Shown here piece by piece: positions 52,401-55,243 of a DNA stretch of 64,000 nt. The notes under the pieces were generated by a model, which was not told the DNA's origin, ran no database searches, and was given only the letters and a program-made list of their open reading frames with translations. Source of the stretch: Mycobacterium noviomagense (GTDB lineage: Bacteria; Actinomycetota; Actinomycetes; Mycobacteriales; Mycobacteriaceae). Both the position numbers and the translations under genes were made by a program. How positions within the stretch are numbered: position 1 is the first letter of the stretch; each line of letters opens with the position of its first letter. The stretch covers positions 2,294,001-2,358,000 of the forward strand of contig NZ_AP022583.1 of NCBI RefSeq assembly GCF_010731635.1, read 5' to 3'.

Positions 52401-52585
52401 ATACCCCGGTCATCGGCCCCAGACATCGGGGGGTTACAGATGTTAGCGATCTGCGACAAGTGCGGCAACGGCTAAGACAGCGCATTTTACCGTGAACATG
52501 CGCCGATGGGCGAACCGCCACCCTCGACAGGGTCGAATGGGCTGCAAGGGACCTGCTGCCGCAGCTTCGCGCGTTCCGGACCTAA
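52401..52585 (+). pseudogene. decayed CxxC zinc-ribbon peptide gene with half-operator
   Basis: ATG 52440 begins MLAICDKCGNG then hits TAA. In other frames the rest of a recognisable small Zn-binding protein follows: AFTVNM, then ADGRTATLDRVEWAARDLL, ending at 52583-52585. The original probably looked like MLAICDKCGNxYDxAFTV..., a mycobacterial small CxxC protein family. Upstream, ATACCC at 52401-52406 is a half-site of the operator seen at the CsoR-like regulon. The rest of 52246-52439 is featureless. Confidence 0.5.
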
Positions 52586-52673
52586 ACGCTAACGTTCAGC
52601 GGCCGAACGCCGCATGAAGTGATCAAGGTCGGGGGACTCGCAGTTTTCGGTCTTCCGGTCTTGCTGAAGCTGC

Positions 52674-53048
52674 TCACTCGGGTGAGCCCGGTCCCGCCTT
52701 CGCGTCGGCGAATTCGCAGAACGCGTCGTAGGCGCGGGCGCCGTAAATTGTGGCCGGCCCACCGTGCATGAGAAACGTGACACCAATGGCTTCGGCCGCT
52801 TCTTCCTTGGATGCCCCAGCGCGCGCGGCCCCTTGGGCGTGCGAGGCGATGCACCCGTCGCAGCCGGCTACGACACCGATGGCCATCGCGATGAGCTCTT
52901 TGGTTTTCCTGTCCAATGCTCTCGGAGTCAGCGCGCCGTTGCTCATCTCGGCGAAGCCCTGGTAGACGTCAGGGATGATCTTGCGCAGCGCGCGGTGTTG
53001 GGGATGGAGGTCGTTGAGTACGTCCTGGTAGCAAGTGTGATCACTCAT
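52674..53048 (-). CDS. carboxymuconolactone decarboxylase-like / AhpD-type protein
   Basis: A 124-aa all-alpha CMD-domain protein with the AhpD-like redox motif CDGCIASHAQGA (CxxC and His) near residues 63-74. Such proteins act as alkylhydroperoxidase partners or thiol oxidoreductases. The start ATG 53048 follows TATTCT by seven bases (leaderless), with an ATACCC-N4-GGGTAT operator at 53065-53080 directly upstream. So it is probably controlled by the CsoR-family protein encoded divergently. Confidence 0.88.
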   Translation of the reverse strand: MSDHTCYQDVLNDLHPQHRALRKIIPDVYQGFAEMSNGALTPRALDRKTKELIAMAIGVVAGCDGCIASHAQGAARAGASKEEAAEAIGVTFLMHGGPATIYGARAYDAFCEFADAKAGPGSPE

Positions 53049-53055
53049 GACCAGT

Positions 53056-53080
53056 AGAATACCAATACCCGCGGGGGTAT
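53056..53080 (-). promoter_or_regulatory. CMD gene leaderless promoter with operator O1
   Basis: ATACCC-GCGG-GGGTAT (53065-53080) is a perfect 6-bp dyad with 4-nt spacer. On the minus strand TATTCT (53061 to 53056) follows by a few bases, seven bases before ATG 53048. Confidence 0.7.
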
Positions 53081-53124
53081 TCCAGCGATGCTGGCCGGAT
53101 CAGACGGCGCTCAGTGACGTCACC

Positions 53125-53143
53125 ATACCCCCGGGGGTACTAT
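53125..53143 (+). promoter_or_regulatory. csoR-like promoter with operator O2
   Basis: ATACCC-CCGG-GGGTAC (53125-53140) is the second operator, 60 bp from O1. The hexamer TACTAT (53138-53143) overlaps its right arm as the likely -10. Shine-Dalgarno GGAGGA at 53165-53170 precedes ATG 53175. Confidence 0.7.
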
Positions 53144-53174
53144 TGGCGATGCCGACTGGATTTTGGAGGACAAA

Positions 53175-53447
53175 ATGATCGATAGCGATGAGGAAAGCAT
53201 TGCCGCGGTGCTTAATCGGCTGCGACGCGCTCATGGGCAACTGGCCGGGGTGATCGCGATGATCGAGCAGGGCCGTGATTGCAAGGAGGTCGTGACGCAG
53301 CTTGCGGCGGTGTCGCGTGCCCTCGACCGGGCTGGGTTCAAGATCGTCGCATCAGGTCTCCGGCAGTGCATCGCGGGCAGCAGGAAAGCCGGCCCGCCCA
53401 CACTGACGGAGGCCGAACTTGAAAAGTTGTTCCTGGCGCTGGCGTAA
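53175..53447 (+). CDS. CsoR-family repressor lacking the copper His (CstR-like)
   Basis: A 90-aa all-helical CsoR/RcnR/FrmR-family repressor: NRLRRAHGQLAGVIAMIE is the helix-1 signature. The two conserved sensor cysteines fall at C36 (GRDCKEV) and C65 (LRQCI), the same numbers as in M. tuberculosis CsoR. But position 61 is Gly where CsoR has the Cu(I) ligand His, and residue 35 is Asp rather than Tyr. Glu81 is kept. This Cys-only pattern is that of CstR, which senses persulfides and sulfide rather than copper. Start ATG 53175 with a good Shine-Dalgarno. Confidence 0.88.
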   Translation: MIDSDEESIAAVLNRLRRAHGQLAGVIAMIEQGRDCKEVVTQLAAVSRALDRAGFKIVASGLRQCIAGSRKAGPPTLTEAELEKLFLALA

Positions 53448-53503
53448 TCCTCGGTGAGGGATCGCAATTGATGCGGTATTCGAAATTGGAGGAAGGACAA
53501 GCA

Positions 53504-53917
53504 ATGGAAACACGACTGACCGCCACGCTGCACACCTCGTTCGAGGAGGCGGTCGAGCAGATCACTAGAGCGCTGGCCGATCAGGGTTTCGGCGTGCTGA
53601 CCACGATCGACGTCAAAGCCACGCTGAAACAGAAGCTCGGGGAGGACATGGAGAACTACCTGATACTCGGTGCCTGCAATCCGGCGCTGGCGCATCGCGC
53701 GCTGGATGTGGATCGGCAGATCGGGCAGTTGTTGCCGTGCAACGTGGTGGTGCGAACCGATGCCGCCGACGCGGGCGACACCATCCTGGTCGAGGCGATG
53801 GACCCGCAGATTATGGTTCGGGTGGCTGACCAGCCCGGGCTTCAGGATATTGCCGACCAAGCCGCGGCGAAACTCCAGGCCGCGATCAGCGCGCTGAGTG
53901 ACAAAGCGAAGGTATAA
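53504..53917 (+). CDS. DUF302 protein, full-length
   Basis: A 137-aa DUF302 protein of the TT1751 fold. Key segments are FGVLTTIDVKATLKQKLGE, LGACNPALAHRAL and LLPCNVVVR, which carry two conserved Cys. The family has no proven reaction; it often accompanies sulfur oxidation/transfer genes and CsoR-family sensors. ATG 53504 has Shine-Dalgarno GGAGGAAGGA (53488-53497). It follows the csoR-like gene by 56 bp in the same direction and is probably in its operon. Confidence 0.88.
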   Translation: METRLTATLHTSFEEAVEQITRALADQGFGVLTTIDVKATLKQKLGEDMENYLILGACNPALAHRALDVDRQIGQLLPCNVVVRTDAADAGDTILVEAMDPQIMVRVADQPGLQDIADQAAAKLQAAISALSDKAKV

Positions 53918-53947
53918 CAACCTTGACGCTTCGAACCGCAGTCGACG

Positions 53948-54109
53948 ATGGGCTGTGAGGCTGAGGTGAACCAGCTTCTCGAGGACTCCGGCAGCCGCGG
54001 GGATAAGCCATTCAGCCCCGCGGCAGCGGAACCGAACGCCAGTTCCGGCGATCAGCGAAAGTTGCTGTCTCACTTGAGCTATAGCCTGTCCTGGAAGCCG
54101 CCGAACTAA
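53948..54109 (+). CDS. possible 53-aa protein of unknown function
   Basis: ATG 53948 opens 53 codons, MGCEAEVNQLLEDSG..., ending KPPN. It is hydrophilic, Ser/Ala-rich and has no Shine-Dalgarno or recognised motif. May be spurious or a remnant. The rest of 54110-54348 holds the promoter of the second DUF302 gene. Confidence 0.25.
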   Translation: MGCEAEVNQLLEDSGSRGDKPFSPAAAEPNASSGDQRKLLSHLSYSLSWKPPN

Positions 54110-54207
54110 ACGACACGCGGTCACTTAATTTATGTCAGGTTTCCCGGGCGATAGCTCGGCGGTATCAGTGCGTTCGGCGGGTGCCGATGCCGGTCGCAAC
54201 CCAGACG

Positions 54208-54226
54208 ATACCCCGGCGGGTATAGT
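54208..54226 (+). promoter_or_regulatory. promoter of the second DUF302 gene with operator O3
   Basis: ATACCC-CGGC-GGGTAT (54208-54223) is a perfect 6-bp dyad with 4-nt spacer, the third copy of the motif. The -10 hexamer TATAGT (54221-54226) overlaps its right arm. This places the gene cluster from 54349 under the same repressor. Confidence 0.7.
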
Positions 54227-54348
54227 GGGCACATTAGAGCAGCATATGCCCGGCGAGGAGGTGGCAGCGACCGCAACGTGGGACAGCCCTCGCCACGCCA
54301 TTTACTGACGTTCCGCATGCAACCAAAACCAGGAGAGGGGAAAAAATC

Positions 54349-54633
54349 ATGGTCACCGTTACAAGTGCGTCCACCGGCACAACCGACTTCGGTAAAATGG
54401 AAAGAACCCGAGAAGTGTTGAAGGACAACGGCGTCGGAGCCCTGACTGAGATTGACGTGCAGGCGACCCGCAAAGACAAGCTGGGGGAATCGATGGAACG
54501 TTACGTGATCGAGGCAATGAACACCCAGCTGATGGTCCAGTTCGTCGAGAACCCGGGGTTGTGGTCCGTCGCCGAACAAGCGACAGGGCAACTGCAGGCC
54601 GCGATAAGCACGCTTGCCGAGGAAATGCGATGA
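54349..54633 (+). CDS. DUF302 protein with internal deletion
   Basis: A 94-aa DUF302 paralog. The N-terminal half (NGVGALTEIDVQATRKDKLGE) and C-terminal half (EAMNTQLMVQFVENPGL) align with the upstream gene, but about 45 residues in between are missing, exactly the block with LGACNPALAHR and LLPCNVVVR. The join is in frame (MERYVIEAMN). Both conserved Cys are thus lost. Shine-Dalgarno GGAGAGG. The stop overlaps the DsbA-like start by ATGA. It may be non-functional or have a binding role only. Confidence 0.8.
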   Translation: MVTVTSASTGTTDFGKMERTREVLKDNGVGALTEIDVQATRKDKLGESMERYVIEAMNTQLMVQFVENPGLWSVAEQATGQLQAAISTLAEEMR

Positions 54634-55243
54634 CGTCGATCGATCTCTACGTCGACCCGATATGCCCATTTGCCTGGGTAACATCGCGTTGGTTGCTGGA
54701 TGCAGTCAGCGGCACCGGTCGCCGTGTCGCACTGCGGCAGATGAGCTGGCGGTGCTCAACGACGGTCGCGACGTAGCGCCGGCGCAGCGTATCAAACTGG
54801 AGTGGTCCCGTCGGGTAGGCAGAGTTTGCGTCGCCGCGACAGACGAAGATGCGCCCAGCGCCTTCGGCAAGCTCTACGAAGCGTTGAGCGCCCGCATGCA
54901 CCACAGCCACGCGGACTGGACTGACGCCATGGTCAAGGAGGCGCTGGCGGAGTCGGGCCGCAGTCCGGCGCTGGTCGGCGCGCTCGATGACCCGACGTGG
55001 GATGACGCCGTGAAGGCGGCTCATCAACGCAGTCAGGATGCGCTTGGCGGCAGTGGCGGTAGTCCGATCATGGCAGTCGAGGGCAGGGGATTTTTCGGGC
55101 CAGTGCTGACGGCGCTTCCCACTCGAGACGACGGGCGCGCGCTGCTCGACGCCGTGGTGACTGTGGCGTCGGCGCCCGAATTCGCCGCCCTGCAACGCCC
55201 CCACCAGGGGCCACCGTCGACGCCTGGTGCGCAGCGTCGCTGA
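54630..55243 (+). pseudogene. DsbA-like mycothiol-type oxidoreductase, frameshifted
   Basis: ATG 54630 begins MTSIDLYVDPICPFAWVTSRW, the N-terminus of a DsbA-family protein like Rv2466c, and continues to LRQMSW. There the frame breaks; the sequence resumes as LAVLNDGRD in the next frame and runs to 55243 (~204 aa in all), including GSPIMAVEGRGFFGPVL (cis-Pro region). One missing base near 54747 (ATGAGC|TGG) explains it. The active site is CPFA rather than CPWC, with the resolving Cys absent. A natural indel or assembly error. Confidence 0.75.

What the first reader, a model, noticed from the sequence alone, without database searches (positions are those of the whole stretch)
52401..55243. Candidate persulfide/thiol-stress regulon built on a CstR-like CsoR-family repressor
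The repressor (53175-53447) keeps Cys36 and Cys65 of M. tuberculosis CsoR but has Gly at position 61, where CsoR has the Cu(I) ligand His, and Asp instead of Tyr35. Cys-only members (CstR) sense persulfide. Three near-identical dyads ATACCC-N4-GGGTA(T/C) sit on the promoters of a CMD/AhpD-like gene (53065-53080), of the repressor (53125-53140) and of a second DUF302 gene (54208-54223); a half-site lies upstream of a decayed CxxC gene (52401). Targets are thiol-redox or DUF302 proteins, and DUF302 is often linked to sulfur transfer. I know of no described mycobacterial regulon of this make-up.
Basis: partly seen in the sequence, partly recalled or inferred. Interest (0 to 1): 0.75.

Follow-up and report, generated by a model that had tools for sequence, protein, structure and literature searches.

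The report
Likely persulfide-sensing gene switch in mycobacteria
A small cysteine-based repressor in this mycobacterium most likely senses reactive sulfur (persulfides) and switches on thiol-chemistry genes together with a large membrane transporter.

Summary
The three dyads and the repressor residues are real. All six exact dyad places in the 4.78 Mb genome lie in this locus and in a paralogous copy 1.36 Mb away. The repressor occurs in 251 of 297 Mycobacterium genomes. In 82 close relatives Cys36, Gly61 and Cys65 are invariant, and the same dyad precedes the repressor and persulfide-dioxygenase/rhodanese, rhodanese, CoADR-rhodanese, thioredoxin, CMD, DUF302 and MMPL genes. Streptomyces ScCsoR senses sulfane sulfur with the same cysteine pair and motif (PMC7533328, passages read). 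The persulfide reading is therefore well supported by context, but untested in vitro.

In other mycobacteria this MmpS subfamily carries the dyad directly (26 of 30 nearest, 13 of 20 intermediate, 0 of 20 distant paralogues). The 'second DUF302 gene' is a remnant, the Rv2466c-like gene is frameshifted here, and the half-site at 52401 is best taken as chance. Verdict: a mycobacterial variant of the known CstR/ScCsoR kind of switch, with DUF302, CMD and an RND transporter as outputs.

The parts
52674..53048 (-). CMD/AhpD-core protein (124 aa) with CxxC, divergent from the repressor
   Evidence: PF02627 2.3e-22; TIGR00778 ahpD_dom 7.4e-15; dyad within 300 bp upstream in 12 of 21 CMD hits, own two copies included
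53065..53080 (.). operator dyad 1, ATACCC-N4-GGGTAT, upstream of CMD
   Evidence: arms identical in the second copy while 3 of the 4 spacer bases differ
53125..53140 (.). operator dyad 2, ATACCC-N4-GGGTAC, 34 bases before the repressor ATG
   Evidence: own-promoter dyad in 70 of 79 usable named loci
53175..53447 (+). CsoR-family repressor, Cys36/Gly61/Cys65 (persulfide-sensor-like clade)
   Evidence: PF02583 1.8e-22; residue counts; tree
53504..53917 (+). DUF302 protein, 137 aa, with conserved Cys58 and Cys79
   Evidence: PF03625 6.9e-23; C58, N59, P60, P78, C79, N80 invariant in 27 aligned sequences chosen from the cluster, and C58 in 49 and C79 in 50 of 52 rows that include the remnants; model pLDDT 88, fold of 1j3m/1q9u
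54208..54223 (.). operator dyad 3, ATACCC-N4-GGGTAT, heading the DUF302-remnant/Rv2466c-like/mmpS/mmpL run
   Evidence: counterpart at L006 7835 in the second copy
54349..54633 (+). decayed DUF302 remnant (94 aa, conserved cysteine core missing)
   Evidence: no Pfam match; partial DUF302 similarity, 35%
54630..55243 (+). Rv2466c-like thioredoxin-fold protein with a single active-site Cys (CPFA), interrupted by a frameshift in this copy; the second copy is open
   Evidence: PF22234 4.1e-31 for its longer open frame; two tblastn pieces; the second-copy protein matches Rv2466c structures
55401..55832 (+). mmpS (MmpS-family accessory protein)
   Evidence: PF05423 2.9e-48; dyad association of its nearest relatives in other genomes
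55829..58687 (+). mmpL (MMPL/RND transporter, 952 aa)
   Evidence: PF03176 8.4e-205; TIGR00833; duplicated with the locus, 93.7% DNA identity

Best explanation
The repressor is a sulfane-sulfur (persulfide/polysulfide) sensor that works like CstR and Streptomyces ScCsoR. When reduced it binds ATACCC-N4-GGGTAT dyads at three promoters and represses the CMD gene, its own operon (repressor-DUF302) and the run of genes that ends in mmpS-mmpL. Persulfides would react with Cys36 and link it to Cys65 of a neighbouring subunit (di- to tetrasulfide; the cross-link chemistry is recalled from CstR work), the protein would leave the DNA, and thiol-handling proteins (CMD with CxxC, DUF302 with its conserved Cys pair, a monothiol Rv2466c-like protein) and an MmpS-MmpL transporter would be made. 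Shown here: the dyads, their placement, the conserved residues, the clade and the gene associations in relatives. Inferred from relatives: that this repressor binds these dyads, and that sulfane sulfur is the inducer. Conjecture: the roles of DUF302 and of the transporter.
For: Dyad statistics (194 dyads against 1 reversed-control match in 1.15 Mb of 80 named loci, exact 92 against 0). Own-promoter dyads in 70 of 79 usable loci. Dyads within 300 bp upstream of CoADR-rhodanese 7 of 7, rhodanese 11 of 11, PDO-rhodanese 21 of 29, Trx 7 of 12, CMD 12 of 21, MMPL 11 of 19, mmpS 5 of 6 hits (domain identities). Cys36, Gly61 and Cys65 each in 82 of 82 clade members, against Tyr35 and His61 in 10 of 10 copper-type paralogues. 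Around 10 copper-type loci none of the partner genes was found and no dyad at up to 1 mismatch. Tree: the clade (28 of the 82 used) is one group (97/95) and joins 7mq1 (a CstR by recall) with 93/85. ScCsoR: two cysteines at the matching places, 16-bp motif ATACCn6GGTAT, targets PDO, TauE and rhodanese, released by polysulfide (PMC7533328).
Against: No biochemistry on a mycobacterial member was found. The ScCsoR sequence was not compared, so orthology with it is not shown. This genome has no close PDO-rhodanese homologue (best 38% over residues 16-200 of 463), so the best-known output is missing here. 12 of 82 loci have neither the core sulfur genes nor DUF302 nearby. Some partners rarely have their own dyad (TauE 2 of 17, YgaP-like 0 of 13, Rv2466c-like 1 of 8, DUF302 18 of 52), which fits inner operon genes but was not shown gene by gene. 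The 82 relatives were chosen for closeness (80 best of 484). The tree rests on 88 columns with long branches. PMC7533328 reports that its motif also resembles RicR (copper) sites, so the DNA motif alone does not exclude copper control.
Confidence: 0.75

Rival explanations
1. It is a copper sensor that has lost His61 but still binds Cu(I) through Cys36 and Cys65, controlling a copper/oxidative-stress operon with mmpS-mmpL.
For: Family membership. PMC7533328 notes motif similarity to RicR sites. An MmpS/MmpL pair of the M. tuberculosis complex was tied to a hypoxia-specific copper response (PMC9048740, abstract and passages), though its relation to this subfamily was not tested.
Against: Gly61 in 82 of 82 and Tyr35 in 0 of 82, against His61/Tyr35 in 10 of 10 copper-type paralogues. 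The genome has a separate copper-type paralogue at 2,056,243 with no dyad at up to 2 mismatches in 10 kb. The partner set is sulfur-related and was not found around 10 copper-type loci.
Confidence: 0.1
2. It is a broad thiol/electrophile or peroxide sensor (not persulfide-specific); CMD, Rv2466c-like and Trx partners are general thiol-stress genes.
For: CMD has an AhpD core; the Rv2466c-like protein belongs to a mycothiol-dependent nitroreductase family; a Mn-catalase gene lies just upstream of the locus.
Against: PDO-rhodanese, CoADR-rhodanese and rhodanese-YgaP partners with their own dyads point to sulfane sulfur specifically. The Mn-catalase promoter has no dyad at up to 2 mismatches.
Confidence: 0.12
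3. The window copy is a decaying duplicate with little function; the second copy carries the working system.
For: Two copies, 86.8% and 93.7% DNA identity over the two main blocks; frameshifted Rv2466c-like gene in the window copy and a DUF302 remnant in both.
Against: Repressor (98% identical), DUF302, CMD, mmpS, mmpL and three dyads are open or intact in both copies. Dyad arms differ at 1 of 36 positions while spacers differ at 6 of 12.
Confidence: 0.15

Closest known systems
ScCsoR (SCO0620) sulfane-sulfur circuit of Streptomyces coelicolor (PMC7533328; passages and section 11 read)
   Same: CsoR-family repressor with two functional cysteines (Cys37, Cys66, taken to match 36 and 65); operator ATACC-N6-GGTAT; autoregulated; PDO, TauE and rhodanese targets, which this clade also has in other Mycobacterium and Rhodococcus loci
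   Different: In this genome the targets are CMD, DUF302, an Rv2466c-like gene and mmpS-mmpL, without a close PDO-rhodanese; two locus copies; ScCsoR sequence not compared here
CstR (Staphylococcus/Streptococcus), cst operon
   Same: Cys-only sensor site (no His) and Asp before the first Cys (7mq1); [quoted passage not shown]
   Different: 38% identity over 61 residues to 7mq1, whose identification as S. pneumoniae CstR is recalled (the PDB label reads copper-sensing csoR); position 61 is Gly here, Asn there
Rv1766 of M. tuberculosis
   Same: Described as an uncharacterised CsoR-like regulator; proteins clustering with it lack the Tyr and H...C of CsoR/RicR (PMC4531530, passage read); up in hypoxia together with Rv1767 (PMC4916473, passages read)
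   Different: Sequence not compared here; membership of this clade is a lead, not tested
CsoR and RicR copper sensors
   Same: PF02583 family; C/G-rich palindromic operators (PMC10318464 and PMC7533328, passages)
   Different: Tyr35 and His61 absent here; separate group from the copper-type rows; different partners
TTHA1953 of Thermus thermophilus (PMC10318464, passages read)
   Same: CsoR-family repressor of sulfur genes; cysteine redox state and not the tested metals changed DNA binding
   Different: Controls sox genes far from its own locus, with a motif the authors call novel for the family

Membership tests
CsoR/RcnR family (PF02583) | Pfam domain above the curated cut-off | tested here: met
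   79.9 bits against cut-off 22.8
Copper-sensing CsoR/RicR | Cys36-His61-Cys65 Cu(I) site with Tyr35 | tested here: not met
   Gly61 and Asp35; RicR NCBIfam 38.5 bits against cut-off 175
FrmR (formaldehyde) | FrmR equivalog score and grouping | tested here: not met
   29.1 bits against 133; E. coli FrmR groups with RcnR, apart from the clade
CstR/ScCsoR-type persulfide sensor | two conserved cysteines, no metal-ligand His | tested here: met
   82 of 82 (80 named loci plus both own copies); 29 loci give Cys at both places in 29, Gly61 in 28 and Ser61 in 1, partly the same species
CstR/ScCsoR-type persulfide sensor | operators at sulfane-sulfur genes (PDO, rhodanese, TauE, CoADR) | tested here: met
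   met for the clade; in this genome itself the targets differ and no close PDO-rhodanese was found
CstR/ScCsoR-type persulfide sensor | phylogenetic grouping with a known CstR | tested here: inconclusive
   joins 7mq1 with 93/85 but long branches are flagged; ScCsoR itself not available
CstR/ScCsoR-type persulfide sensor | release from DNA by persulfide through its cysteines | not testable with these tools
   needs protein and a DNA-binding assay

The most novel reading that the evidence does not exclude
An MmpS-MmpL (RND) transporter subfamily is a dedicated output of a persulfide-sensing repressor in many mycobacteria: they respond to excess sulfane sulfur by exporting a sulfur-loaded lipid or thiol conjugate (for example a persulfidated mycothiol derivative) through MmpS-MmpL, with DUF302 as a cysteine-based persulfide carrier that feeds it. 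A second, distinct MMPL subfamily plays the same part in Rhodococcus and Nocardia.
Probability: 0.3. Interest if true: 0.8.

Novelty: new variant of a known kind. Interest (0 to 1): 0.6.

Why it matters
It gives a widespread mycobacterial CsoR clade a testable effector (sulfane sulfur), places DUF302, a family of unknown function, among persulfide genes, and links an MmpS-MmpL transporter subfamily to reactive-sulfur stress. MmpL substrates are hard to guess from sequence; a shared operator is evidence about when the transporter is needed.

Tried and rejected
Half-site at 52401 and 'decayed CxxC gene': rejected as chance (21 such hexamers in the window, 5 of them in the dyads; only two matches of 32-33 bases outside this genome among the loci held).

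Other palindromic 1-mismatch dyads in the genome (164,959 and 4,285,666): both lie inside long open frames, so not counted as targets. The 8 other places with a 1-mismatch match on one strand were not examined.

Third DUF302 gene (3,207,489): 63% identical to the reference DUF302; no dyad at up to 1 mismatch in 10 kb, one 2-mismatch site; not placed in the regulon.

Promoter scan: no sigma-70 consensus in 52900-54400; uninformative.

DUF302 fold search: the 5 matches with E up to 0.001 are two other DUF302 structures (1j3m, 1q9u) and three chains of 7tj1, titled as a CrcB protein of Brucella; no functional hint.

The first ORF caller missed real genes, the repressor included, and was replaced by homology clustering. 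Several clusters look like antisense shadow frames and were ignored. In one search the frame reader misread or missed many of the 28 loci; only 10 copper-type proteins it read properly were used.

Paper searches (held PMC library only; titles, abstract starts and, where said, passages seen): Rv1766 (9 papers), CsoR+persulfide+mycobacter (25, 20 listed), DUF302+CsoR (3), persulfide dioxygenase+mycobacter+rhodanese+repressor (6), RicR motif terms (13, 10 listed), MmpL+CsoR (32, 15 listed), mycobacter+sulfane sulfur+mmpL (3), CsoR+sulfane sulfur+Rhodococcus (0), mmpL6/mmpS6 (30, 10 listed), DUF302+sulfur (12). No title or abstract start seen there names this mycobacterial regulon or an MmpL under such a repressor. 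Most subscription papers are not held.
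Full report
What is there. The window lies at 2,294,001-2,358,000 of a single-contig 4,779,798-base genome. The locus reads CMD (minus) - two dyads - repressor - DUF302 - dyad - DUF302 remnant - interrupted Rv2466c-like gene - mmpS - mmpL. The three dyads are exact and above chance in the window.

A second copy. The six exact dyad places of the genome fall in two loci: the window and 3,710,695-3,711,849. 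The second copy (L006) has the same gene order. DNA identity is 86.8% over window 52655-54499 and 93.7% over 54590-58725; the repressors are 98% identical. In the CMD-repressor intergenic region 102 of 126 aligned columns agree, and 328 of 438 in the region before the DUF302 remnant. Over the three dyads the arms differ at 1 of 36 positions and the spacers at 6 of 12, as expected for sites under selection, though the numbers are small. The Rv2466c-like gene is interrupted here and open in L006; the second DUF302 is a remnant in both.

The repressor. Over 82 clade members (the 80 named loci, which are the best 80 of 484 confirmed, plus the two own copies), Cys36, Gly61 and Cys65 are each 82 of 82, Asp35 is 69 of 82 and Tyr35 is 0. 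In 10 copper-type paralogues Tyr35 and His61 are 10 of 10; these 10 are the copper-type loci whose frame the script read properly, out of 28 loci that also include clade members. Twenty-nine loci give Cys at both places in 29, Gly61 in 28 and Ser61 in 1, and 20 hits near mmpS genes give Cys, Gly and Cys in 20; these sets partly overlap. The tree (46 rows, 28 of the 82 clade members, 88 columns) makes the clade one group (97/95), joined to 7mq1 with 93/85, apart from the copper-type group; the program warns of long branches and few columns. That 7mq1 is S. pneumoniae CstR is recalled; its PDB label says copper-sensing csoR.

Distribution. The repressor is found in 251 of 297 Mycobacterium genomes, own genome included, at E up to 1e-10. 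The 80 named relatives also come from Mycolicibacter, Mycolicibacterium, Rhodococcus, Prescottella, Nocardia, Gordonia, Williamsia, Speluncibacter, Streptomyces and Kitasatospora.

Partners. In the 82 loci, within 6.5 kb: DUF302 51, PDO-rhodanese 27, TauE 26, CMD 22, MMPL (717 aa type) 21, thioredoxin 13, YgaP-like 13, rhodanese 10, CoADR-rhodanese 9, Rv2466c-like 8, mmpS 7, mmpL 7 (domains). At least one of PDO, TauE, rhodanese or CoADR: 37 of 82; one of these or DUF302: 70 of 82; neither: 12 of 82. Within 1.5 kb of the repressor none of these partners is found around 10 copper-type loci, against for example DUF302 in 45, TauE in 23 and PDO in 21 of 82 clade loci. The reference proteins were taken from the clade loci themselves, so these counts describe the clade and are not an independent test; the dyad counts below are.

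Operators. In 1,152,615 bases of the 80 named loci there are 194 dyads at up to 1 mismatch against 1 for the reversed motif, and 92 exact against 0. 70 of 79 loci with enough upstream sequence have one within 250 bp of the repressor start; by a looser count on the 29 loci it is 18 of 29. By gene, within 300 bp upstream and counting only hits with a near-complete N-terminus in the 82 loci: CoADR-rhodanese 7 of 7, rhodanese 11 of 11, PDO-rhodanese 21 of 29, thioredoxin 7 of 12, CMD 12 of 21, MMPL 11 of 19, mmpS 5 of 6, DUF302 18 of 52, TauE 2 of 17, YgaP-like 0 of 13, Rv2466c-like 1 of 8, mmpL 0 of 7. The low ones fit inner operon genes, which was not checked gene by gene. The reversed motif scored once at PDO and once at rhodanese. 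Dyads often come in tandem: of 58 pairs of starts less than 80 bp apart, 8 are 21 bp and 25 are 34-35 bp apart. The 10 copper-type loci had no dyad at up to 1 mismatch.

The transporter. The window MmpS was searched in 198 Mycobacterium genomes and 400 bp upstream of 70 of the hits were read. Nearest: the 30 hits returned as loci (67-100% identity; the own second copy and a second hit of one genome are not among them): 26 of 30 have the dyad. The own window copy is one of the 4 without, because its dyad lies 1.2 kb up, at the head of the run. Intermediate: 20 hits of 60-69% identity, 13 of 20. Distant paralogues: 20 hits of 47-53% picked from the list, 0 of 20. The reversed motif: 0 of 70. In many of these genomes the transporter is divergent from a repressor - Rv2466c-like - DUF302 operon, with one or two dyads between. 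In other genomes the dyad is there without a repressor in the 3.4 kb read. All 51 genomes with a listed MmpS hit of 60% or more also carry the repressor, against 168 of 198 overall (hypergeometric p about 6e-5, not corrected for kinship, from the lists). So this subfamily, present in about a quarter of the genomes sampled, is very likely a member of the regulon, and in the window it is the third dyad's main output.

Known work. In Streptomyces coelicolor ScCsoR binds ATACCn6GGTAT before PDO-tauE, rhodanese and itself. Polysulfide lowers its binding; Cys37 is persulfidated, and Cys37 and Cys66 are both required (PMC7533328: passages and section 11 read). This is the same motif and, by position, the same cysteine pair. 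The same paper says its motif resembles the G. thermodenitrificans CsoR and M. tuberculosis RicR sites, so DNA sequence alone does not decide between copper and sulfur. TTHA1953 (PMC10318464, passages) is another CsoR-family regulator of sulfur genes. Rv1766 is named as an uncharacterised CsoR-like regulator, and proteins clustering with it lack the Tyr and H...C (PMC4531530, passage). It and Rv1767 rise in hypoxia (PMC4916473, passages), and it is a possible counterpart. DUF302 occurs in sox clusters of some sulfur oxidisers (PMC5037610, passages). An MmpS6-MmpL6 pair has been tied to copper and oxidative stress, with conflicting results on the latter (PMC9048740, abstract and passages; PMC7000671, passages); whether it belongs to this subfamily was not tested.

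DUF302. CNP (Cys58) and PCNVV (Cys79) are invariant in 27 sequences chosen for completeness; in 52 rows that include remnants Cys58 is kept in 49 and Cys79 in 50. The model (pLDDT 88) has the fold of two solved structures, 1j3m titled a conserved hypothetical protein and 1q9u an uncharacterised DUF302 protein. A cysteine-based role in sulfur transfer is plausible, but inferred only.

Judgement. Repressor-dyad pairing: very likely. Sulfane sulfur as inducer: likely (0.75), resting on relatives. Persulfide transfer by DUF302 and export by MmpS-MmpL: open hypotheses. The system is a variant of a known kind; the DUF302/CMD/MmpS-MmpL output is the new part.

Noticed in passing
L006 974-6298 (second copy): Two long open frames (931 and 806 aa) that look like P-type ATPases by their DKTGT motif (no domain search run) lie directly upstream of the second copy's CMD gene, in contrast to Mn-catalase upstream of the window copy.
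   Followed up: no
window 51436-52245: Manganese catalase (PF05067) next to the locus, no dyad at its promoter.
   Followed up: partly
L055, L057, L065, L069, L082, L096, L098, L100, L103, L112, L113: A different MMPL transporter (717 aa type) has the dyad within 300 bp upstream in Rhodococcus, Nocardia, Streptomyces, Gordonia, Williamsia and Kitasatospora records.
   Followed up: partly
L113: The Kitasatospora arboriphila locus has the same layout and distances as the Williamsia muralis locus L103: recent transfer or contamination of that assembly.
   Followed up: no
L062: The repressor-TauE-PDO operon sits on a plasmid of Mycolicibacterium frederiksbergense with spacing almost identical to L056 and L072, which suggests that the module moves.
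   Followed up: no
L157-L179: A recurrent repressor - single-Cys Rv2466c-like (CPFS) - DUF302 operon divergent from mmpS-mmpL; position 35 is Ser in 12 of the 20 repressor hits read.
   Followed up: partly
G000:C1:3207489 (L185): Third DUF302 gene in the genome, without a dyad at up to 1 mismatch.
   Followed up: partly
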